Source: Pilimelia terevasa (GTDB taxonomy: Bacteria > Actinomycetota > Actinomycetes > Mycobacteriales > Micromonosporaceae). Taken from it: a stretch of DNA of 64,000 nt. The position numbers and the translations under genes are program-made. A model generated the notes under the pieces. It saw only the letters and a list, made by a program, of their open reading frames with translations, did not search any database and was not told the origin of the DNA. Location of the stretch: the NCBI RefSeq assembly GCF_014647915.1, contig NZ_BMQC01000001.1, positions 248,001 to 312,000 on the forward strand. The letters run 5' to 3'. The number at the start of each line of letters is the position of its first letter. The first letter of the stretch is position 1. Below are positions 1-53,249 of this stretch, piece by piece.

Positions 1-451
1 GGACGACCCTGAGGTTCCGCAGGAGCTTCGTGTCTTGCTCTAACATGCGGACGATTCCCGATAGCCATTCAGCGTCCACCTGGGAGCTGACCCGATGGTC
101 GCTGCCCCATCGCACAGCGCTGGTCGAGGACAGCGTCACCGGTGCGACGCCGGCGAACAGCCCGAAGGGCGTGGCGCGGCTGTTCATACGCAGCACGTAC
201 TGCGAAACGGACCTGACCATGCGAGTCCTTTGCCGGACGGTCAGGTCATACCCGCTCTGGACGGCGCGCACTCGTTCAGCGAGGGCAGGGCTGGCGACCT
301 CTACGGCGTCCGCGACCTGGCTGTCACCCCACACCTTGCCCAGCCACACTCGAAATCCGACCAAGTCGTCTGCCTTAGGAACTGTCGGCAGCGGGTAACC
401 GCCGGATAGAACTGCGGCGCGCAGCATCACCGCGTTCGAGTGCATATACAT
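1..451 (-). CDS. Lantibiotic dehydratase (LanB), N-terminal part, runs off the left edge
   Basis: Reading the minus strand from ATG at 451 gives 150 open codons to the window edge. Residues 91-101 read SRATPFGLFAG, preceded by a Q-Y-V-L-R-M-N stretch; this is the conserved N-terminal signature of class I lantibiotic dehydratases. The family activates Ser/Thr of the precursor by tRNA-dependent glutamylation and then eliminates to dehydroamino acids (established knowledge). The start is chosen because GAGGTG lies 5 nt upstream; a GTG at 459 is in another frame. The gene lies 95 bp downstream of the FxLD precursor on the same strand, behind a hairpin. Only about a seventh of a usual LanB is visible, so activity and any fused elimination domain cannot be judged. 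Confidence 0.88.
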   Translation of the reverse strand, partial: MYMHSNAVMLRAAVLSGGYPLPTVPKADDLVGFRVWLGKVWGDSQVADAVEVASPALAERVRAVQSGYDLTVRQRTRMVRSVSQYVLRMNSRATPFGLFAGVAPVTLSSTSAVRWGSDHRVSSQVDAEWLSGIVRMLEQDTKLLRNLRVV

Positions 452-479
452 TCCGTCACCTCATTCCCTTGAAAATGAG

Positions 480-527
480 CCGGTCCCGGACTCGGCGGTT
501 TGGGGACCACGCCGAACCCGGGACCGG
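480..527 (-). terminator. Hairpin between precursor and LanB, probable partial terminator
   Basis: A perfect 10-bp stem (480-489 with 518-527, CCGGTCCCGG/CCGGGACCGG) encloses a second 6-bp stem (492-497 with 510-515). On the minus strand it lies 18 nt after the precursor stop and is followed by CTCATTTTC, a short T-run, before the LanB ribosome binding site. RiPP operons often carry such a hairpin so that more precursor than enzyme mRNA is made; that role here is inferred. Confidence 0.6.
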
Positions 528-545
528 AGCTGTTAGGTCGAAGGG

Positions 546-710
546 TCAGCCGACCTTGCCGCCACCCGACGCGCAGGCGCTCGGACAGGTGCTACCGCAG
601 TTATCACTGGTGTCCCGCATGAGTGCCGCAACGAACGGAGCTCCGTTGACGACGTTGATGTCGAGCTCGAAGTCCGACGCGACGAGACCTTCGTGTTTAA
701 GATTGATCAT
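546..710 (-). CDS. FxLD-family lanthipeptide precursor peptide, 54 aa
   Basis: The ATG at 710 has AAAGGAA a few bases upstream and opens a 54-residue peptide. Residues 14-17 are FELD within DFELDINVV, the leader motif that names the FxLD family. The C-terminal core has three cysteines (38, 42, 46) among Ser/Thr residues (T34, S35, S40, T41, S44, S48), arranged as NCGSTCPSAC, and ends in a Gly-rich tail GGGKVG. Family knowledge: LanB dehydrates Ser/Thr and a LanC-type cyclase forms (methyl)lanthionine to Cys; no cyclase is visible in the window. It lies directly downstream of the FxLD methyltransferase and upstream of LanB. Asp33 and Asp36 are candidate substrates for the methyltransferase (inference). 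The leader cleavage site cannot be set from sequence. Confidence 0.88.
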   Translation of the reverse strand: MINLKHEGLVASDFELDINVVNGAPFVAALMRDTSDNCGSTCPSACASGGGKVG

Positions 711-747
711 GTTGTTTCCTTTCGAGGGATACTTCCACCCAGCCCGT

Positions 748-1941
748 TCAAGACCAGGAGACTGTGATCCGGACGTGCTTCTTGTCGACCACGAGCCCGT
801 CGGGGAGCTGCTCGTCCGCCGTGCCGACGGGGTAAGCGGAGATGTGTGGAGTCGACCCGTACCGGTAACCGGAATTCCAAGCACAAACCTGAGCGGCGAC
901 CTGCGTGGCCAACTTCTCCCCATCTGGGCCGTGACCGATCGCACCGAACTCGAACGTGTCGTCCTCCGACGCCGGCCGCAGCGTGAGGTACGCGAACGAG
1001 CCACCGTCGAACACCGCAGAGGCACCCCACGGCAGCGCGGGCGTGACAACCTTCGCCTCGATCGCCGGACGCTGCACATGCAACCGGCAGAAGCCCGGCA
1101 ACGCAGTCGCCAGCCACAGGTCCAGGCCGTCGAACGGCTCCTGCGAGCCGACGGTCACCCCGGACCACACCGTTGTCGGCGGTTCGCTCATCGCCGCGCG
1201 CAGCGCGTCACGGTCGAACGGCTTGTCGTCCACCCGCAGGCCGACATCCTCACCGTGCAACAGGACCAGGTCCTCCTTGCGCTCACTGGCGCCCTGCATT
1301 CGCACGAAACCGCACAGCTCAACCGACCGGGACACCAACCGATCGCCGTCGCGCTCGAAGACCACTGAGCGAGTCAGGCCGCTGATCCGCACAGGGACGA
1401 TGATCCGCCCGCCGAGCGCTAGCTGTTCAGTCCACGCCGGTGGGATGTCCCACGCGCCGGCAGTGACGATGATCCGGTCGTAGGGCGCGTACCGCGCCAC
1501 ACCGAACTCGCCGTCGCCCTGCTCGACGTTGACGTTGGTGTAGCCGGCCGCCGCCAGGCAGTCGCGGGCACGGTCCACCACATCCTGATCGATGTCGATC
1601 GTGGTCACCTCGCCACCCGGGCCGACCAGCTCGCTGATCAAACTGGCGTTGTAGCCACCGGACCCGATCTCCAGCACGCGCATGTCGGGCTCGATCTCCG
1701 CCTGCTCCAGCATCAGGGCGATGATGTTTGGTGCCGACACGGAGCTGATCACGACGCCATCGTCATCACGCTTGGTCGCCACGATGGCGTCTGCGTAGGC
1801 GTCGTCCAGACTTGCGTCAGGGGTGAAGAGATGGCGGGGCACAGCGGCGAAGGCAGCGGCCACCCGATCGGTGCGAATGATGCCCTTACCCCGCAGCGAG
1901 TGAACGAGAGCAGTGCGAAGATCATCGGCTTCGTGGGTCAA
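748..1941 (-). CDS. FxLD-system methyltransferase (PCMT-like)
   Basis: 397 residues starting at TTG 1941, chosen because AGGAGG lies 5 nt upstream; the reading frame stays open further upstream but without a good ribosome binding site. The N-terminal half (residues about 10-200) is a protein-L-isoaspartate O-methyltransferase fold: SAM motif VLEIGSGGYN at 89-98 and the acidic VTTIDID strand after it. The C-terminal 190 residues form an extra domain seen in lanthipeptide-associated members. Relatives such as OlvSA methylate an Asp of the cyclised peptide so that it rearranges to isoaspartate or aspartimide (established); that this enzyme does so is inferred from context. It is 37 bp from the precursor gene and its start overlaps the small ORF upstream by 20 bp, indicating one operon. 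Confidence 0.85.
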   Translation of the reverse strand: MTHEADDLRTALVHSLRGKGIIRTDRVAAAFAAVPRHLFTPDASLDDAYADAIVATKRDDDGVVISSVSAPNIIALMLEQAEIEPDMRVLEIGSGGYNASLISELVGPGGEVTTIDIDQDVVDRARDCLAAAGYTNVNVEQGDGEFGVARYAPYDRIIVTAGAWDIPPAWTEQLALGGRIIVPVRISGLTRSVVFERDGDRLVSRSVELCGFVRMQGASERKEDLVLLHGEDVGLRVDDKPFDRDALRAAMSEPPTTVWSGVTVGSQEPFDGLDLWLATALPGFCRLHVQRPAIEAKVVTPALPWGASAVFDGGSFAYLTLRPASEDDTFEFGAIGHGPDGEKLATQVAAQVCAWNSGYRYGSTPHISAYPVGTADEQLPDGLVVDKKHVRITVSWS

Positions 1942-2176
1942 GGTGACCTCCTGGGTTGTGGGGGAGCGAAACGCCCAGCCGCATCGGCTGGGCGGTGCCG
2001 GGCGCCAAGTGTGCCGCGAAGTGTTCGCGTCTTGTGAACAGGTTCGCCGCCTCACAGCACGGTGTTTCCCGGCCGCAGGCGCAGCACGCGCCGCCGCCCG
2101 GCATGTGCCTGGCGAGCGCTTCTTCGGCGAGCCTGACCTGTTCAACAGCGAACGCTTGAAACTCGTGTTGACTCAT
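1922..2176 (-). CDS. Small cysteine-motif protein, unknown function
   Basis: 84 residues from ATG 2176 (GAGG 8 nt upstream; another in-frame ATG lies at 2182 but too close to the Shine-Dalgarno). An alpha-helical N-terminus (HEFQAFAVEQVRLAEEALAR) precedes CCACGRETPCCEAANLF, a CxxC...PC pattern that recurs in the two neighbouring small ORFs and could bind a metal. I do not recognise a named family. Its end overlaps the methyltransferase start by 20 bp, so the two are probably translationally coupled. Confidence 0.55.
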   Translation of the reverse strand: MSQHEFQAFAVEQVRLAEEALARHMPGGGACCACGRETPCCEAANLFTRREHFAAHLAPGTAQPMRLGVSLPHNPGGHLDPRSR

Positions 2177-2186
2177 CGGCATGACC

Positions 2187-2486
2187 TCATCGCCACTCGC
2201 GGTCGGCGTGGTTCGCGCTGGTCATCGGCAAGCTGAGGCGTATCGTCCTGGAGTCCTCTGGAGGACGATGGGGTGTCCCGTGGCTAGGAGCGCCGCAAGC
2301 ACCGAGCCGCGCCAGGGCGCGTTTGAGGGTCTCCGCATGGGAGCAGGGGAGCTCGCGTTCACAACGGCAGACGCCCCTGTAGGGGTCCTCTCCATGAGCC
2401 AGCAGCATCGCCATCACCTCGCCGATCTTGTGCTCAGCGGGGTGGCACACGCGCGCGACGCCGCGCACGGTGGCGGTCACGACCAC
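2187..2486 (-). CDS. Small cysteine-motif protein, unknown function
   Basis: 99 residues from GTG 2486. A helical start (HKIGEVMAMLLAHGEDP) leads to GVCRCERELPCSHAETLKRAL, again a CxC...PC motif followed by a helix. The C-terminal 35 residues are low in features. The start overlaps the end of the preceding gene by 10 bp and the stop lies 10 bp before the next gene start, so it is the middle member of a tightly packed trio. There is no strong ribosome binding site, which fits coupling. Function unknown; a spurious frame is possible but the shared motif argues against it. Confidence 0.5.
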   Translation of the reverse strand: MVVTATVRGVARVCHPAEHKIGEVMAMLLAHGEDPYRGVCRCERELPCSHAETLKRALARLGACGAPSHGTPHRPPEDSRTIRLSLPMTSANHADREWR

Positions 2487-2785
2487 GGCCCGGTGCGGCG
2501 ATCGAGTGCGAGGACGGCGTCGTCCGTCCAGCCAGCCTCGACGAGCACGTCAGTGGCCCAGATGCGAGTTCGGCAGGGATATGGCTCGCGGCAGCTCAGG
2601 CACAAGCGGCCCTGGGGCCACTCGATCGGACAGTGCTGACGGACGGCGCGCTCGGCAAGCGGTACCTCGTGGGCGGGTCCCGTGTTGGGAGCATCGCATG
2701 TCTGCAACCTCACCCCTCGCCCTCCAATCGCTGATGGTTGAGCACCCTGGTCTGGAATCAGCCTCACTGCGTGACGCAGCCTCAC
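2477..2785 (-). CDS. Small cysteine-motif protein, first gene of the lanthipeptide operon
   Basis: Up to 102 residues from position 2785; the true start may be internal, since the first 35 residues are featureless. The core reads QHCPIEWPQGRLCLSCREPY followed by PCRTR, a CxxC...PC motif like that of the next two genes, then a predicted helix (IWATDVLVEAGW). Short proteins with such C-x-x-C/P-C segments are frequent in actinomycetes beside regulators, without known role. It faces the HTH regulator at 2948 across a 160-bp divergent region that should hold the operon promoter. Confidence 0.5.
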   Translation of the reverse strand: MRLRHAVRLIPDQGAQPSAIGGRGVRLQTCDAPNTGPAHEVPLAERAVRQHCPIEWPQGRLCLSCREPYPCRTRIWATDVLVEAGWTDDAVLALDRRTGPWS

Positions 2786-2947
2786 GAAGCGGAAGGCAAG
2801 TCGTGCTGGGCGTTGGATCTATCGTCGCCAGTTCGCAAGATCAGCTCCATGACGGCCAGATGCCGTTCGCTGGCCGTCGGGATGCCGTATCGGCGAAGAC
2901 GAGCAGGAACCGTCGCCGATGGACCAGTGGCCGCCTATCGTGGCGGA

Positions 2948-4252
2948 ATGGAACGGCCGCGACCACGCACACGGCTTGAGGACCTCGTCCGACGTAGCCA
3001 GCGGACCATTGAAGAGAACTGCACGATGTTCAACCGCACGGCTGAGCAGATGGGCGAGCGTGCGTCACTGTCTCCGCGGCAGCTCAGCCGTTGGATGACC
3101 GGTGAGGTGTCCACCGCCCGTCCTGTGATGCGGCGGGTCGCCGAGCGGCATTGGGGTATGCCGTTCTCAGCCTTGATCGCCGACCCGTGCCTCGGCACGG
3201 CGGAGATCTCGACTTTGCCGGTCACTGGACTGGCCGTGCCGGACGCATTGGAGGCAGCGATCACGATGGCAGCACATGAGAGTGCCCGGCACGCTGCGAC
3301 GGCAGGCGGCGCTGTGGACGAGGTCAGCATCGAGCAGGTTCACGCCGACATCCGTCGTCTCGCGGCGCGGTTCGCTGAGACACCACCGATCCACGTGTTG
3401 GCCGCCGCACGGCTGGCCCGCGACAGCGCATACCGGCTACTGGAACGCACCCGCCGTCCTGCGCAGACCTCGGACCTCTATCTAGCTGCTGGCCAGGCGT
3501 GCGGGCTCATGGCGTCGGCCTCGTTCGACCTTGGAATCTGGGAGGCCGCCGAAGACCAGGCGCGGGCTGCCCACACCTACGCGGACCTTGTCGACCATGC
3601 AGGACTTCGCGCCTGGTCGCGGGGAACCCAGGCGTTAATCGCCTACTGGACTGACCAGCCTCGCCGTGCGGTCGACCTCGTGGAGGCTGGCCTGGACTAC
3701 GCCACGCCGGGAGCCAGCGCGGCGAGGCTTCACGGAATCCGTGCCCGCGCCTGGTCTCACCTCGGTGACCGACGGGAAGTCACCAGCTCCCTCCGGGCCG
3801 CCGACACCGAGATCGACAGCGCGCCGACAGGCGAATGCGTGGACGACCTGAGCGGCGATTTCGGCTGGGGGCGCAGCCTCCACGAAGCGTGCGCCGCCAC
3901 CTCGCTGCTGCGCATCGGCGACTTCGGGGCCGCCGCCGCGCGCTCGACCACCGCGCTAGACGCCATCCCCGATGATCCGTACGCCACCCTCGTCCCCGAA
4001 CGAGCACACATCGATATCGCCCTGGGGCGGCTCGGCACCGGCCACCTTGACGCAACCATCGATGCACTGGAGCCTGTCTGGGGCACGCCCATACCGCATC
4101 GGCGGCAGGCACTCACCGGCCGCCTAACCGACCTCGCCCGGACGCTCACCACGTCGCCCGTTGCCGGCGAACGGCCTGCCATCGATCTGCGAGACCGCAT
4201 CGAGATATTCAACGCCGAGGCGAGCCAGATACGGGCGCTAACCGCGTCCTGA
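2948..4252 (+). CDS. HTH-domain regulator with helical-repeat C-terminus
   Basis: 434 residues from ATG 2948 (GGCGGA upstream; weak). An N-terminal XRE-like helix-turn-helix is seen at about residues 12-65, with the recognition segment LSPRQLSRWMTGE. The remaining 350 residues are Ala/Leu-rich paired helices of tetratricopeptide type, as in actinobacterial regulators that read a peptide or small-molecule signal. It is divergent from the lanthipeptide operon, so it is a candidate pathway regulator (inference). Its 3' end overlaps the convergent epimerase gene by 15 bp. No operator could be picked out in the 160-bp divergent region. Confidence 0.72.
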   Translation: MERPRPRTRLEDLVRRSQRTIEENCTMFNRTAEQMGERASLSPRQLSRWMTGEVSTARPVMRRVAERHWGMPFSALIADPCLGTAEISTLPVTGLAVPDALEAAITMAAHESARHAATAGGAVDEVSIEQVHADIRRLAARFAETPPIHVLAAARLARDSAYRLLERTRRPAQTSDLYLAAGQACGLMASASFDLGIWEAAEDQARAAHTYADLVDHAGLRAWSRGTQALIAYWTDQPRRAVDLVEAGLDYATPGASAARLHGIRARAWSHLGDRREVTSSLRAADTEIDSAPTGECVDDLSGDFGWGRSLHEACAATSLLRIGDFGAAAARSTTALDAIPDDPYATLVPERAHIDIALGRLGTGHLDATIDALEPVWGTPIPHRRQALTGRLTDLARTLTTSPVAGERPAIDLRDRIEIFNAEASQIRALTAS

Positions 4253-5269
4253 CAACACGGCGGCGTCCCACCGACGCAGCAGCTCCTGTTCATGTGCCGC
4301 ATTCAGGCCATGCTCAGCTTGGCGTGGATGCGGCACCGGGGGCTGCTCCTGAGCGGCTGACCAGGCGTCCAGCACCGTTACGGCTAGAGGCCGGCAGTGG
4401 AAGCCAGCCACCGCCGCTTGGCCGCCGTCGACGCACCATGTCCCGGCGGCCGTACGCCATAGTGGGATCTCGGTCCACTGCCCGACCCCTTGCTCCGTGA
4501 GCCATCGCGGATCGACCCATACCAGGTCAGCAGTCCCGCCCGTGGCGCTCAGGCAGGCGTTGACAAGGTCACGGTAGGTCGCGAATCCCTCCGGCGCGGT
4601 CAGGTTGTACGTCGCGCCGTCGTCGGCCTCGACCCTGTCGAGGATGAACGCACTCACATCCCTCACATCCACCGGTTGGATCGGCTGCTGCGGTGGGCCA
4701 GGTACGAGCCACCGCCCGCCACGCTTGGCGCGGGCAAGTAGCGTGCTCATCCGTCCTACGTACTCACCCGGACCCAAGATCACTCCGGGGCGCACGATCA
4801 ATGACCCAGCCTCAGCGCGCCGCGCCGCCAGCTCGCAACCGGCCTTTAGCACGCCATATTGAAACCGCTCCGGCATGTCCTTGATGTCGTCGTCGGTCTC
4901 CCGGATGTCAGCGCGCGAGGGCCACACCGCCGACTGTTCGTTGACGGGCTTCTCCGGCCAGTCCCGGTATGCCGAGACTGTCGAGACCAGGGCGTACCGC
5001 CCGGCGGCCGAGCCGAGCGCCGTCAGCACCCGGGACACGTCTGCTGGCTCGTACGCGCTGGTGTCGATCGTCGCGTCCCACGGACCGTACCCGGCCAGGG
5101 CCTTGAGGTCGTCCTGGCGAGTCCGGTCACCCGTAACCCGAGCCGCGCCGGGTACCGGCATCCCGCTTCGTCCACGGTTGAACAAGGTGACCTCCCAGCC
5201 GCGAGCGAGCGCGTCCGAGGCCAGCGTGCGGCCGAGGAACCATCCCCCACCGAGAATCAGTATCCGCAT
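4238..5269 (-). CDS. NAD-dependent epimerase/dehydratase (extended SDR)
   Basis: 343 residues. A Rossmann start MRILILGGGWFLGRTLA gives the nucleotide-binding GxGxxG-like motif at residues 7-13; the catalytic Tyr-Lys pair is Y138/K142 in FQYGVLK, with Ser96/Ser99 in STVS before it. A conserved RPGVILGPGEYVGR segment follows, typical of atypical/extended SDRs related to isoflavone reductase and nucleoside-sugar epimerases. The substrate cannot be told. It is followed at 74 bp (upstream on this strand) by the M20 peptidase, so the two may be co-transcribed. A role in lanthipeptide tailoring is possible but unsupported. Confidence 0.75.
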   Translation of the reverse strand: MRILILGGGWFLGRTLASDALARGWEVTLFNRGRSGMPVPGAARVTGDRTRQDDLKALAGYGPWDATIDTSAYEPADVSRVLTALGSAAGRYALVSTVSAYRDWPEKPVNEQSAVWPSRADIRETDDDIKDMPERFQYGVLKAGCELAARRAEAGSLIVRPGVILGPGEYVGRMSTLLARAKRGGRWLVPGPPQQPIQPVDVRDVSAFILDRVEADDGATYNLTAPEGFATYRDLVNACLSATGGTADLVWVDPRWLTEQGVGQWTEIPLWRTAAGTWCVDGGQAAVAGFHCRPLAVTVLDAWSAAQEQPPVPHPRQAEHGLNAAHEQELLRRWDAAVLSGRG

Positions 5270-5343: not shown

Positions 5344-6468
5344 TTAGCGGCTGCACAGTCGATCGACCAGGGCGGCGAGGAGTGCCGCGCGTTCTGGCAT
5401 GGCGTTGACGTCAACCCACTCGCTGCGTGCGTGCGGGTGCCCGCCCACAGCGCCCAACCCGTCGAGGGTTGCCACGCCGAGCGCGGCCGTGATGTTGCCG
5501 TCGGACCCACCGCCCGATGACACCCCATCCGGCGGCGCAAGCCCTACGTCTCGGGCCGCATCCTGTGCAACCTGGAGCAGTGGCAGAGCGACCGCCCGCT
5601 CAAGCGGGTATCGGTTGACGCCGCCATCAACGGTTAGCTCGGCGCCAGCGAGCCGTGGGCGAACCAGCCGGATCGCGGCGTCTACCCGGTCCAGTTCCTC
5701 GCCGGTCCAACTGCGCACGTCGACATGAATCACCGCACTGGCCGGCACCGTATTCGTCGTCGTACCCGCCGCCAAAACGGTCGGAGTCACTGATGTGCCC
5801 GCCTGCGGCGCCGCCAAGGCTTGCGACGCCAGGACTTGATGAGCCAGCTCCACCCCGGCGTTCACACCTAGCTCCGGCTCAAGGCCGGCGTGCGCGGCGC
5901 GGCCCACGATGCTGAGCCGGTAGCCCGCCGTGCCCTTGCGGGCTACCTTTACCGCCCCGCCGTCGGCGCTCGGCTCGCATACCAGCACAGCGCCGACTCG
6001 ACGCGCCTCCTCCTCGATCAAGTCGCGGGACGTGGCTGAGCCGGTCTCCTCATCGCAGGTCAGTAGCACACTGACTCGCTGACGGTCCCTGAGGAGTTCC
6101 ACCGCCGTAAGCATCTGGACGATGCCGGCCTTCATGTCGAACACTCCAGGCCCGCTCGCCACCCCATCGGCTACCGACATCGGCCAGTCCACCACCGTGC
6201 CCAGCGGCCACACCGTGTCGAAGTGCCCCAGCAACAGCACGGCCGGATCAGGGGCGCGCCACAGCAGATGCGGATCGTTCCCTCGCACCACCCTTCGAAC
6301 GGAGCGGTCGAGTGCCGCCTCACCCCACTCCGCCAGGAGGCCGGCGCATCGTTCCAATGCCGCGACCTCGCCGGAGGGCGACTCGCATGTTACGAGCTCG
6401 AACAACCTGTCGACCATGACCGAGGCTCGTTGCTGAGCCTGTTGGCGTAGAACCTCCCGGCGCACCAC
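5344..6468 (-). CDS. M20-family metallopeptidase (carboxypeptidase G2-like)
   Basis: 374 residues from GTG 6468 (AAGGA 7 nt upstream). Zinc-site motifs of clan MH are intact: GHFDTVWP (H82, D84), GPGVFDMKAG (bridging Asp111) and catalytic DEETGS (E140/E141). A dimerisation (lid) domain lies at about residues 185-290, and GGGSDGNITAALGVATLDGLG and HARSEWV at the end supply the last ligands. The layout matches carboxypeptidase G2/CPS-type exopeptidases that remove C-terminal residues or deacylate amino acids. No signal peptide, so cytosolic. Same strand as the epimerase gene. Substrate unknown; family assignment is secure. Confidence 0.85.
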   Translation of the reverse strand: MVRREVLRQQAQQRASVMVDRLFELVTCESPSGEVAALERCAGLLAEWGEAALDRSVRRVVRGNDPHLLWRAPDPAVLLLGHFDTVWPLGTVVDWPMSVADGVASGPGVFDMKAGIVQMLTAVELLRDRQRVSVLLTCDEETGSATSRDLIEEEARRVGAVLVCEPSADGGAVKVARKGTAGYRLSIVGRAAHAGLEPELGVNAGVELAHQVLASQALAAPQAGTSVTPTVLAAGTTTNTVPASAVIHVDVRSWTGEELDRVDAAIRLVRPRLAGAELTVDGGVNRYPLERAVALPLLQVAQDAARDVGLAPPDGVSSGGGSDGNITAALGVATLDGLGAVGGHPHARSEWVDVNAMPERAALLAALVDRLCSR

Positions 6469-6641: not shown

Positions 6642-6938
6642 ATGCTGGAGCCTGACGAGTTGACCTTGAAGATCGCCCGACACCTGGAAATCGACTTCCA
6701 GTACGTGAAGCGCTTCGAGTCCTGGGATAGCGCCGGCATCGCGCAAGCCCGTGCGGCCGGTCGGGCGGCGGGCCGGCTTCTTGGTCGCAAGGTCTTGACG
6801 GTTCAGTCAGAGCCCGACGAGGAGGGCCGCGTCAACGTGGTCGTTGTGGTCCGAGAGGTGGACGGGGAGGATCGGCAGCGGATGGAGGAGCGGAGCCGCC
6901 TGATCCTCGAACACCTGTGGCAGGACCCGCCTGACTGA
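6642..6938 (+). CDS. Conserved hypothetical protein, 98 aa
   Basis: ATG 6642 is preceded by GGAAGGA. The N-terminal half reads LTLKIARHLEIDFQYVKRFE followed by a helical Ala/Gly-rich stretch; the second half is a beta-rich VNVVVVVREV plus a helix rich in Glu/Arg. No membrane segment or signal peptide. It is the last gene before the tRNA-Tyr remnant and is divergent from the M20 peptidase. I do not recognise its function. Confidence 0.6.
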   Translation: MLEPDELTLKIARHLEIDFQYVKRFESWDSAGIAQARAAGRAAGRLLGRKVLTVQSEPDEEGRVNVVVVVREVDGEDRQRMEERSRLILEHLWQDPPD

Positions 6939-7007: not shown

Positions 7008-7063
7008 CGGACTGTAAATCCGTCGCGAAAGCTACAGAGGTTCGAATCCTCTACCCGCCACCA
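7008..7063 (+). pseudogene. tRNA-Tyr 3' fragment (5' half missing), probable integration scar
   Basis: The stretch contains a Tyr anticodon loop (CTGTAAA), the 3' side of the anticodon stem, a short variable-arm stem, a T-arm (AGAGG-TTCGAAT-CCTCT), the 3' acceptor strand ACCCGCC at 7053-7059, discriminator A and encoded CCA. The expected 5' acceptor strand (GGCGGGT) and D-arm are not found upstream, where the sequence is unrelated. So only the 3' part from the anticodon stem is present. tRNA 3' halves left like this are typical of attachment sites of integrative elements; S. coelicolor SLP1 is known to use a tRNA-Tyr gene. Confidence 0.8.
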
Positions 7064-52484: not shown

Positions 52485-52498
52485 GCGACGCAGGTACA

Positions 52499-52588
52499 TC
52501 CGCGGGAGCCCGGCGCACCGGGCTGAGAGGGGGGCTGGCGCCCCCGACCGTCGCACCTGATCCGGGTAATGCCGGCGCAGGGAGGAGT
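52499..52588 (+). promoter_or_regulatory. TPP riboswitch (THI element)
   Basis: Conserved THI-box features in order: GGGAGCCCG...CGGGCTGAGAGG, an internal GGGGG/CCCCC stem, GACCGTCGCACCTGATCCGG, GTAATGCCGGCGCAGGGAGG. CTGAGA and the CCTGATC...GTAATGCC segments bind the two ends of thiamine pyrophosphate. The ribosome binding site of thiE (GGAGGAG) overlaps its 3' end 7-8 nt before the ATG, so control by hiding the ribosome binding site is likely. Confidence 0.93.
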
Positions 52589-52592
52589 CACG

Positions 52593-53249
52593 ATGTCGCA
52601 GCCCGGTCGACTACACCTGCTCACCGACACCCGGCCCGGTACCCGCCCGCTGGCGGTGCTGCGGGCCGCGCTCGCCGTACCCGTGCCGCCCGCCGTCGGG
52701 CTGGTCGTCCAGGTCCGGGTCGAGGACGCCTGGACCGACCGGGACGCGTACGGGCTGGTCGCCGCCGCCCTGCCCCTGTGCCGGGCCGCCGGTGCCGCCT
52801 GCCTGGTCAACGACCGGCTCGACGTCGCGCTCGCCGCGGGCGCCGACGGCGGCCACGTCGGGGCCGAGGACCTGCCGGTCGACGCGGCCCGCCGGGTGCT
52901 CGGCGCCGGTGTGCTGGGCGCCACCTGCCGCAGTGCCGCCGCCGCCCGGGACCACGCCGCCGCCGGTGCCGACTACCTGGGCGTCGGGCCGGCCTTCGCC
53001 ACCGGCACCAAGGAGGGCCTGCCCGCCGCGATCGGACCGGCGGGTGTCGCCGCCGTGGCGGCGGCGGTCCCCGGTACCCCGGTCATCGCCATCGGCGGCG
53101 TCACGCCCGACCGCGTCGCGGAGCTGTGCGCGGCCGGCGCGTACGGCGTCGCCGCGGTGTCGGCGGTGACGGCGGCGGCCGACCCGGCCGCCGCGGTGGC
53201 CGCCTTCTACGCCGCGTTCGCCGCGGTCGGCGCCGGGGCGTCCCGGTGA
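52593..53249 (+). CDS. thiE: Thiamine-phosphate synthase
   Basis: 218 residues from ATG 52593. TIM barrel with LHLLTDTRP, VNDRLDVALAAGADGGHVGA, DYLGVGPAFATGTKEG and VIAIGGVTPD, the ThiE pattern that joins HMP-PP and thiazole phosphate to TMP. The usual QxRxK motif reads QVRVE, losing the Lys; another Lys (in TGTK) is kept. First gene behind the TPP riboswitch; stop overlaps thiO by 4 bp. Confidence 0.87.
   Translation: MSQPGRLHLLTDTRPGTRPLAVLRAALAVPVPPAVGLVVQVRVEDAWTDRDAYGLVAAALPLCRAAGAACLVNDRLDVALAAGADGGHVGAEDLPVDAARRVLGAGVLGATCRSAAAARDHAAAGADYLGVGPAFATGTKEGLPAAIGPAGVAAVAAAVPGTPVIAIGGVTPDRVAELCAAGAYGVAAVSAVTAAADPAAAVAAFYAAFAAVGAGASR

What the first reader, a model, noticed from the sequence alone, without database searches (positions are those of the whole stretch)
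1..2785. FxLD-type lanthipeptide locus at the left edge, with a LanB start not evident from short-ORF lists
Seen: a 54-residue peptide with DFELD leader motif and NCGSTCPSAC core, a PCMT-like methyltransferase directly upstream and a dehydratase N-terminus (SRATPFGLFAG) downstream. Known: FxLD precursors, FxLD-system methyltransferases and LanB occur together; PCMT-like enzymes in lanthipeptide or imiditide pathways turn Asp into isoAsp or aspartimide. Inferred: product is a three-ring or fewer lanthipeptide with a backbone-modified Asp33 or Asp36. The compound seems undescribed to me.
Basis: partly seen in the sequence, partly recalled or inferred. Interest (0 to 1): 0.72.

Follow-up and report, generated by a model that had tools for sequence, protein, structure and literature searches.

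The report
Lanthipeptide operon carried by a prophage
A bacterial virus lying dormant in this actinomycete's chromosome carries a complete set of genes for a small ring-containing peptide, and because similar peptides are reported to protect bacteria from viruses, the dormant virus may be using it to shut out rival viruses.

Summary
Window 546-710(-) encodes a 54-aa FxLD lanthipeptide precursor (TIGR04363, 62.8 bits, cut-off 30) beside an FxLD-system methyltransferase (TIGR04364, 539 bits, cut-off 320). Left of the window lie an intact 1011-aa LanB, a 402-aa LanC and a stand-alone LanB-lyase-like protein. As chemistry this is an ordinary member of a common actinobacterial type. Asp36 is conserved in 66 of 69 distinct precursors, Asp33 in 19 of 69, so Asp36, inside a predicted Thr34-Cys38 ring, is the likely isoaspartate site.

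A perfect 56-bp att repeat lies at C1:206347-206402 and window 7008-7063; an integrase adjoins the first copy; gene order from HNH nuclease to sigma factor matches a Streptomyces Camvirus, which lacks the cargo. FxLD operons also occur in other viral contigs, in one verified between head and tail genes. LanBC-type lanthipeptides ('lanthiphages') are reported to be anti-phage, so prophage-borne superinfection exclusion is my best, untested, reading.

The parts
546..710 (-). FxLD lanthipeptide precursor, 54 aa (LanA)
   Evidence: TIGR04363 62.8 bits, cut-off 30; ORF read
603..605 (-). codon of Asp36, predicted methylation/aspartimide/isoAsp site, in the TSDNC motif
   Evidence: Asp in 66 of 69 distinct precursors; Gly (52) or Asn (16) follows in 68 of 69
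748..1941 (-). PCMT-type O-methyltransferase, FxLD system (LanSA type), 397 aa
   Evidence: TIGR04364 539 bits, cut-off 320; PF01135
2..451 (-). N-terminal 150 codons of LanB; the full 1011-aa gene runs to C1:245416, left of the window
   Evidence: PF04738 641 bits and PF14028 on L005:11419-14451. LanC (C1:244211-245419) and a stand-alone Lant_dehydr_C protein (C1:243207 to about 244106) follow
1922..2182 (-). small Cys-rich protein, 86 aa, family of unknown function
   Evidence: open frame; 8 matches in the genome at E <= 0.1, this one included, so not FxLD-specific
2187..2486 (-). small Cys-rich ORF, 99 aa
   Evidence: open frame with third-position GC bias; no Pfam or NCBIfam match at E <= 1
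2477..2785 (-). small Cys-rich ORF, 102 aa
   Evidence: open frame; no Pfam match at E <= 1; best NCBIfam match E 0.07
2738..4252 (+). HTH/TPR-like transcriptional regulator in the prophage cargo (start codon not settled)
   Evidence: phrog_10886 transcriptional regulator E 2.3e-6; Pfam HTH_31 only E 0.027; its gene family lies in 6 (this one included) of 52 PCMT loci with lanthipeptide genes and 0 of 29 without (the two groups were listed by hand)
4238..5269 (-). NAD-dependent epimerase-family gene in the cargo
   Evidence: PF01370 29.2 bits, cut-off 20.9; no homologue in phiScoe15 or in the DNA held of two related prophages
5344..6468 (-). M20-family peptidase gene in the cargo
   Evidence: PF01546 96.2 bits, cut-off 24.6; of 58 homologues in relatives compared, none lies within 369 kb of the left flank gene
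6642..6938 (+). 98-aa ORF, last gene before attR
   Evidence: open frame; no PHROG or Pfam match at E <= 0.001
7008..7063 (.). attR: 56-bp perfect copy of the 3' end of tRNA-Tyr; right end of the prophage
   Evidence: identical to C1:206347-206402 inside tRNA-Tyr

Best explanation
A temperate siphophage related to a Streptomyces Camvirus is integrated in the tRNA-Tyr gene (C1:206347-255063; 48.66 kb from repeat to repeat). Between its sigma-factor gene and attR it carries about 12 kb of cargo, and that cargo contains a complete class I FxLD (LanSA-type) lanthipeptide operon on the strand opposite to the phage's structural and replication genes. Proposed mechanism: LanB glutamylates and eliminates Ser/Thr, LanC closes thioether rings (Thr34-Cys38 among them), and the PCMT methylates Asp36 inside that ring, giving an aspartimide that hydrolyses largely to isoAsp. 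No dedicated exporter was recognised, so the product probably acts inside the cell. It most likely protects the lysogen from infection by other phages (superinfection exclusion), as reported for the actinobacterial 'lanthiphages'. Shown: genes, families, att sites, synteny, absence of the cargo in related phages, Asp36 conservation. Inferred: ring pattern, Asp36 chemistry, intracellular action, anti-phage role.
For: Families. Conserved motifs of LanB and LanC line up with NisB, 5ehk and NisC (residue roles recalled). Asp36 conservation. Operon PCMT-A-B-C or A-B-C-PCMT recurs in relatives. Prophage: 56-bp att pair with tRNA-Tyr and adjacent integrase; no third att copy in 118 kb; phage genes by PHROGs; terminase up to 79% identical to Streptomyces phages, the 20 listed records (of 1967 matching) being 48.4-50.8 kb long; collinear from HNH to sigma with phiScoe15 (a Camvirus) and with a prophage of genome G149, cargo absent in both. 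Flank gap: 54.1 kb here, 5.5 kb without the element; median 7.7 kb in 70 relatives (seven left-out genomes are told in the full report). The operon's GC resembles the phage part and is lower than the flanks. FxLD operons in other viral contigs. Anti-phage relatives: PMC12360287, PMC12715929, PMC13343842, PMC12175524, PMC12926258 (passages read).
Against: No function was tested. I could not read the primary anti-phage paper; that its lanthipeptides are FxLD/PCMT type is my recollection plus the LanBC-type description. Of nine proteins given to PADLOC, none of the operon or cargo matched a defence model except the PCMT (a Mads model); a 1TM-effector-like protein lies 32 kb away in the same prophage. 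PMC10023795 reports that no cluster for a known antiphage molecule was found in actinobacterial prophages (abstract). In the family sample only this genome, of 22 with a similar terminase, has an over-cut-off FxLD methyltransferase within 60 kb (my reading of the lists), and none of 33 further genomes with a related integrase has one on the same contig within 60 kb. Phage-borne and chromosomal LanBs do not form separate lineages. An M20-family peptidase in the cargo leaves leader removal, and so secretion, open.
Confidence: 0.55

Rival explanations
1. The operon is prophage cargo but its product is a secreted antibacterial or signalling lanthipeptide that benefits the lysogen in competition; leader removal and export use host functions or the M20-family peptidase of the cargo.
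For: [quoted passage not shown] 2021, seen as a reference in PMC10023795; paper not seen). An M20-family peptidase gene lies in the cargo. Many class I lanthipeptides are antibacterial (recalled).
Against: No LanT, LanP or immunity gene was recognised in the operon. The anti-phage lanthipeptides of Actinomycetota are described as intracellular and without obvious antibiotic activity (PMC12360287).
Confidence: 0.2
2. The operon belongs to an older island at tRNA-Tyr and the phage integrated beside it; the two are neighbours, not one mobile unit.
For: tRNA-Tyr looks like a busy site: 8 of the 70 relatives counted have over 20 kb between the flanks. The cargo includes genes with no PHROG match (epimerase, 98-aa ORF).
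Against: Only two att copies exist and none lies at the phage-operon junction. Without the cargo the phage would be 36.8 kb, while the 20 listed terminase relatives are 48.4-50.8 kb; with it, 48.66 kb. Sigma, att/integrase and the phrog_3965 gene keep phiScoe15's circular order. GC of the operon matches the phage part.
Confidence: 0.1
3. The locus is a decaying passenger with no function, caught by the phage in an earlier host.
For: Passenger genes near att sites are common in prophages (recalled). The precursor has three Cys, while 56 of 69 relatives have four.
Against: The biosynthetic frames are open, LanB and LanC are full length with conserved motifs, and the precursor keeps Thr34, Asp36 and Cys38. 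FxLD operons occur in other viral contigs.
Confidence: 0.1

Closest known systems
FxLD / LanSA class I lanthipeptide clusters of Actinobacteria (TIGR04363 + TIGR04364; OlvA/OlvSA; families I 1-4 of PMC7268733, membership in one of those four not tested)
   Same: Precursor, PCMT with C-terminal extension, full LanB, LanC, conserved Asp in a TxD[G/N]C motif; an additional stand-alone LanB-elimination-domain protein is also described there
   Different: Carried in a prophage with defined att sites; Asn instead of the commoner Gly after the Asp; three Cys instead of the commoner four
Lanthiphages (Shomar et al. 2024/2026, not seen; described in PMC12715929, PMC12360287, PMC13343842)
   Same: LanBC-type class I lanthipeptide cluster in Actinomycetota
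   Different: Reported in bacterial defence islands; here inside a phage genome. Activity untested here
Class I lanthipeptide clusters in Streptomyces prophages (PMC10023795)
   Same: Same cluster class in actinobacterial prophages
   Different: That survey reports putative clusters in 13 of 2112 and gives no family, att sites or mechanism in the passages I read; here the family, phage group and boundaries are set
Camvirus, Streptomyces phage phiScoe15 (OQ672743.1)
   Same: Collinear HNH-terminase-head-tail-lysis-repressor-replication-sigma genes; 49.4 kb
   Different: Here a tyrosine-integrase-like protein (phrog_1 integrase; PF00589 24.1 bits, just under its cut-off) in tRNA-Tyr instead of a serine integrase; about 12 kb of cargo where phiScoe15 has RNR and Lsr2-like genes

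Membership tests
FxLD family lanthipeptide (TIGR04363) | score above the curated cut-off (30 bits) | tested here: met
   62.8 bits
FxLD-system methyltransferase (TIGR04364) | score above the curated cut-off (320 bits) | tested here: met
   539 bits over 394 of 394 positions
Class I lanthipeptide cluster | separate LanB dehydratase with both domains and LanC cyclase next to the precursor | tested here: met
   PF04738, PF14028, PF05147; aligned with NisB and NisC
LanSA-type (isoAsp/aspartimide) lanthipeptide | conserved core Asp inside a TxDxC motif | tested here: met
   Asp36, 66 of 69 distinct precursors
LanSA-type (isoAsp/aspartimide) lanthipeptide | methyltransferase turns that Asp into aspartimide or isoAsp | not testable with these tools
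   needs co-expression and mass spectrometry
Prophage | direct att repeat, integrase, structural and replication genes, site without it in relatives | tested here: met
   15 of 77 relatives with both flank matches on one contig have gaps over 20 kb, so the site is variable
Prophage | can excise and form virions that carry the operon | not testable with these tools
   needs induction and sequencing of particles
Camvirus | genus-level genome similarity to Camvirus | tested here: inconclusive
   terminase up to 79% identical to Streptomyces phages, genes collinear with one Camvirus, but another integrase type; whole-genome nucleotide identity not computed
Lanthiphage (anti-phage lanthipeptide) | LanBC-type class I cluster in Actinomycetota | tested here: met
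Lanthiphage (anti-phage lanthipeptide) | lies among defence genes | tested here: inconclusive
   PADLOC on nine proteins: PCMT matches a Mads model (E 2e-18), one 1TM-effector-like protein lies elsewhere in the prophage, the other seven have no match
Lanthiphage (anti-phage lanthipeptide) | blocks phage infection when expressed | not testable with these tools
   needs plating assays

The most novel reading that the evidence does not exclude
Temperate actinophages have captured FxLD/LanSA lanthipeptide operons more than once and use the intracellular isoAsp-containing peptide as a prophage-encoded chemical immunity that excludes rival phages while sparing the resident phage.
Probability: 0.4. 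Interest if true: 0.78.

Novelty: new variant of a known kind. Interest (0 to 1): 0.52.

Why it matters
The largest class I lanthipeptide families, which carry this methyltransferase, had no characterised member, and the mature form of the one studied was unknown (PMC7268733, passages); LanBC-type lanthipeptides of the same phylum are now reported to be anti-phage. A complete operon as cargo of one well-bounded phage, with related phages that lack it, turns the question of what these peptides do into a direct comparison: same phage, with and without the operon, challenged with other phages. It would also be a case of a virus, not the bacterium, owning a ribosomal peptide defence, and raises the question of how the resident phage tolerates it.

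Tried and rejected
Asp33 as the modified residue: rejected as the favourite, 19 of 69 against 66 of 69 for Asp36. The precursors were found with a profile seeded from 15 precursors of this type, so conservation is somewhat favoured by the search; three non-Asp variants were still recovered. Dropped before the count: read-through stretches over 70 residues (their shorter forms stayed) and one duplicate row.

The small Cys-rich ORFs as second substrates of the methyltransferase (cysimiditide-like): set aside; the 86-aa one has 8 matches in the genome including itself and I saw no Asp-Gly loop in any of the three.

A missing phage acetyltransferase (the reported escape gene is a GNAT) as the reason for self-tolerance: phiScoe15's acetyltransferase has no homologue in this prophage and PF00583 does not match inside it. 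But 15 of the 17 IMG/VR relatives held with a full 10 kb left of the terminase lack it too, so this is uninformative.

The same phage with cargo elsewhere: none found. The integrase's best relative in the other 396 genomes of the order sample is 52% identical, and in the 33 of them with a related integrase no FxLD methyltransferase lies on the same contig within 60 kb; several are draft genomes, so a link across contigs is not excluded.

FxLD methyltransferase in IMG/VR by its own profile: no hit. The LanB profile then found nine contigs, eight with an FxLD-type methyltransferase; so the negative comes from its search patterns. LanB in GenBank phages: 2 records, both under 23% identity; PCMT: 12 records, none over 45% of the query except one at 75%.

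Small Asp-Gly peptides beside eight of the LanB-less methyltransferases: nothing convincing. Structure prediction was not run, as it would not decide between the readings.
Full report
Observation. The ORF at window 546-710(-) encodes a 54-aa peptide with the leader motif FELD (residues 14-17) and a core with three Cys. It scores 62.8 bits against the NCBI model for FxLD family lanthipeptides (cut-off 30), and the gene directly upstream scores 539 bits against the FxLD-system methyltransferase model (cut-off 320). The window lies at C1:248001-312000 of its genome. Reading left of position 1 gives an intact LanB of 1011 aa from ATG at window 451, LanC of 402 aa overlapping its end, and a third gene with a stand-alone Lant_dehydr_C domain (E 3.7e-20).

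Are the enzymes plausible? LanB aligns with the solved dehydratase 5ehk (E 2e-79, residues 42-868) and with NisB, keeping the R-x-T-P-F motif, the Asp and Arg positions of the glutamylation half and the R-x-R / RYG motifs of the elimination half. LanC keeps the His, Cys and Cys-His positions of NisC. The roles of these residues are recalled, not tested. The methyltransferase matches solved protein-isoaspartate methyltransferases over its N-terminal half (1jg1, 1dl5); at 397 aa it has a C-terminal extension, as most RiPP-associated PIMT homologues do (PMC10787088, passages read).

How common is it? TIGR04364 is over its cut-off in 75 of 150 genomes sampled from the same family. The genome has a second, diverged FxLD locus on C11 with the same gene set. 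With a simple homology screen 50 of these 80 carry a LanB in the DNA held (up to 10 kb each side), 47 a LanC and 48 a recognisable FxLD precursor, mostly in the order PCMT-A-B-C, in some A-B-C-PCMT. Thirty of the 80 have no LanB in the DNA held.

Which Asp? Precursors were sought in 110 loci with a profile seeded from 15 precursors; 69 distinct leader-plus-core stretches (the C11 one included) were aligned after dropping read-through stretches over 70 residues and one duplicate row. Asp36 is Asp in 66 of 69 and the next residue is Gly in 52 and Asn in 16; Thr34 in 68 and Cys38 in 69 of 69; Asp33 is Asp in 19 of 69. The three exceptions at position 36 include a tandem second precursor with Gly there (L031, the same pair as in Glycomyces L048). 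The literature puts the modified Asp mostly in a TxDGC motif (PMC10787088), inside a MeLan ring in OlvA, with Gly usual and Asn allowed after it (PMC13001092, passages). I therefore predict isoAsp or aspartimide at Asp36 inside a Thr34-Cys38 ring; this is inference.

The wider find. Left of the operon lie phage genes. Laying out C1:194001-254000 shows a complete-looking temperate siphophage: integrase, HNH, terminase, portal, head maturation protein, major head protein, connector and tail genes, tape measure, Dit, lysin, exonuclease, DnaB-like helicase, RusA, primase and sigma factor (PHROGs). The 3' end of the integrase gene lies 243 bp beyond a tRNA-Tyr gene; it matches the phage integrase family phrog_1 (E 6.8e-25) and Pfam's tyrosine-type PF00589 just under its cut-off (24.1 against 27.1 bits). 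The 56 bp at the 3' end of that tRNA (C1:206347-206402) recur perfectly at C1:255008-255063, which is window 7008-7063; a scan of 118 kb found no third copy (next best 29 of 55 letters). The whole FxLD operon, the small ORFs, the regulator, an epimerase-family gene, an M20-family peptidase gene and a 98-aa ORF lie between these two copies. GC is 0.75-0.79 left of the element, about 0.63-0.72 inside it, operon included, and mostly 0.70-0.73 to the right.

Is the repeat pair the real boundary? In relatives the gene left of tRNA-Tyr (YajQ, PF04461) and a dehydratase-like gene on the right mostly stay close: in the 70 genomes that I paired on one contig the gap has a median of 7.7 kb, 48 of 70 under 12 kb and 8 of 70 over 20 kb (rows copied by hand). 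Seven further genomes with both matches on one contig were left out of that count; their gaps are 61, 64 and 152 kb and, in four, over 0.6 Mb. In six of the seven the right-hand match is weak (33-42% identity); in the seventh (G023) the good match lies 4 Mb away. Here the gap is 54.1 kb, and 5.5 kb once the element is taken away, which is in the common range. Of 58 homologues of the M20-family peptidase that I compared, 30 lie on the contig of YajQ, none nearer than 369 kb, and 28 on other contigs.

Is it one phage? The terminase matches 1967 phage records; the 20 listed are Streptomyces phages of 48.4-50.8 kb with up to 79% identity. The one opened, phiScoe15, is a Camvirus. In it and in a prophage of another family genome (G149) the genes from HNH to sigma factor stand in the same order, with some genes unmatched, while none of the cargo genes tested has a homologue in the DNA held (the precursor itself was not in that test); a third, G078, shows the same but without matches for several genes. 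This element is 48.66 kb with the cargo and would be 36.8 kb without it. On circularisation the order sigma - cargo - att - integrase - phrog_3965 gene matches phiScoe15's sigma - RNR/Lsr2-like - integrase - phrog_3965 order. I take this as strong evidence for a single phage genome with cargo, though excision was not tested.

Does it recur? A LanB profile scan of IMG/VR returned nine loci. Eight hold LanB, LanC, an FxLD-type methyltransferase and one or two FxLD precursors; the ninth (L143) gave LanB only. None of 15 proteins of the present phage matches the DNA held of these loci. In L136 the operon lies between portal / major head protein genes on the left and a major tail protein gene on the right. 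Pooled scans of L135-L138 and of L139, L141 and part of L142 (L140 not scanned) found major head and major tail families in two and one members; from the layouts I attribute them to L136, L137 and L142, but those outputs do not name the members. For the other contigs phage identity rests on IMG/VR. A LanB tree of 54 rows (quick method; L141 not in it) needs at least three changes of the label 'phage' on well supported branches: the present prophage, L135, and one clade of six. The tree alone also allows one gain with losses; with the lack of shared phage genes I read it as at least two separate captures among contigs verified here. Against a general association: within the family sample only this genome, of 22 with a similar terminase, has an over-cut-off TIGR04364 match within 60 kb, although G061 has two below-cut-off methyltransferase matches about 25 kb from such terminases (my reading of the lists); and none of 33 further genomes with a related integrase shows one on the same contig within 60 kb.

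Function. A review describes anti-phage lanthipeptides of Actinomycetota, found near other anti-phage systems at a frequency of 8.8%, active so far only inside the cell, without obvious antibiotic activity, inhibiting phage transcription, late genes above all, with escape mutants in a phage GNAT (PMC12360287, passages). They are called LanBC-type class I 'lanthiphages' (PMC12715929). One is the product of the S. coelicolor cluster next to cvn8, SCO6927-SCO6938, with precursors SCO6931 and SCO6932 (PMC13343842, PMC8510531, PMC12175524, passages), LanB SCO6930 and LanC SCO6929 (PMC3091789, passages). That this cluster is FxLD with a PCMT is my recollection and comes from no call. The primary paper was not available. 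With no exporter recognised here, the likeliest role of the operon in a prophage is superinfection exclusion; I hold the function at about even odds.

Novelty. A 2023 survey already notes putative clusters in 13 of 2112 actinobacterial prophages analysed, several of them class I lanthipeptide clusters in Streptomyces prophages, and says that no cluster for a known antiphage molecule was found (PMC10023795, abstract and passages). My searches listed no title or abstract start that describes an FxLD/LanSA operon in an actinophage with defined att sites or proposes it as prophage immunity; most subscription papers and all preprints are outside that library. As a lanthipeptide locus this is an ordinary new member; as a phage-owned lanthipeptide operon of the LanBC type with set boundaries it is a new variant of a known kind.

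Noticed in passing
G000:C11:72000-78200 (L006:4063-10170): Second FxLD locus in the same genome: PCMT, precursor with two Cys (TSDGCGS...), LanB of about 913 aa, LanC and stand-alone Lant_dehydr_C.
   Followed up: partly
L006:11521-18504: Beside the C11 locus: a carbamoyltransferase, a radical SAM/SPASM protein with a 53-aa ORF directly upstream (possible second RiPP), and an M28-type peptidase.
   Followed up: no
L044:16424-17137: Protein in the prophage's left arm matching PADLOC 1TM effector models (E 2e-15), no Pfam match; no partner gene looked for.
   Followed up: no
L135-L142 (IMG/VR contigs): Eight viral contigs with FxLD operons, in L136 between head and tail genes.
   Followed up: partly
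L048:11216-11647 and L031:1033-1464: Glycomyces operon with two tandem precursors, one with TSDGC and one with SSGGC: a natural Asp-less copy.
   Followed up: no
30 of the 80 loci L046-L125 (e.g. L047, L053, L061): FxLD-type methyltransferases with no LanB in the DNA held; adjacent substrate not recognised in the eight looked at.
   Followed up: partly
L048:16606-17994 and 17 other loci: A TPR-like protein of about 380 aa lies near the FxLD operon in 17 of 52 loci with lanthipeptide genes and in 1 of 29 without; not seen at the window's locus.
   Followed up: partly
window 1922-2182 and seven other places in the genome: Family of small Cys-rich proteins (CxxCG...PC) with eight matches, two of them on C7 near HTH regulators; function unknown.
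   Followed up: no
G000:C8:121757-123094: A second integrase 47% identical to that of the prophage, so possibly another integrated element.
   Followed up: no
G061:C1:7371798 and 7838119: Below-cut-off PCMT-type methyltransferase matches about 25 kb from phage terminases; Streptomyces phages such as PapayaSalad also carry a PCMT-like O-methyltransferase.
   Followed up: no
window 52492-52600: TPP riboswitch on the + strand, 61.8 bits.
   Followed up: no
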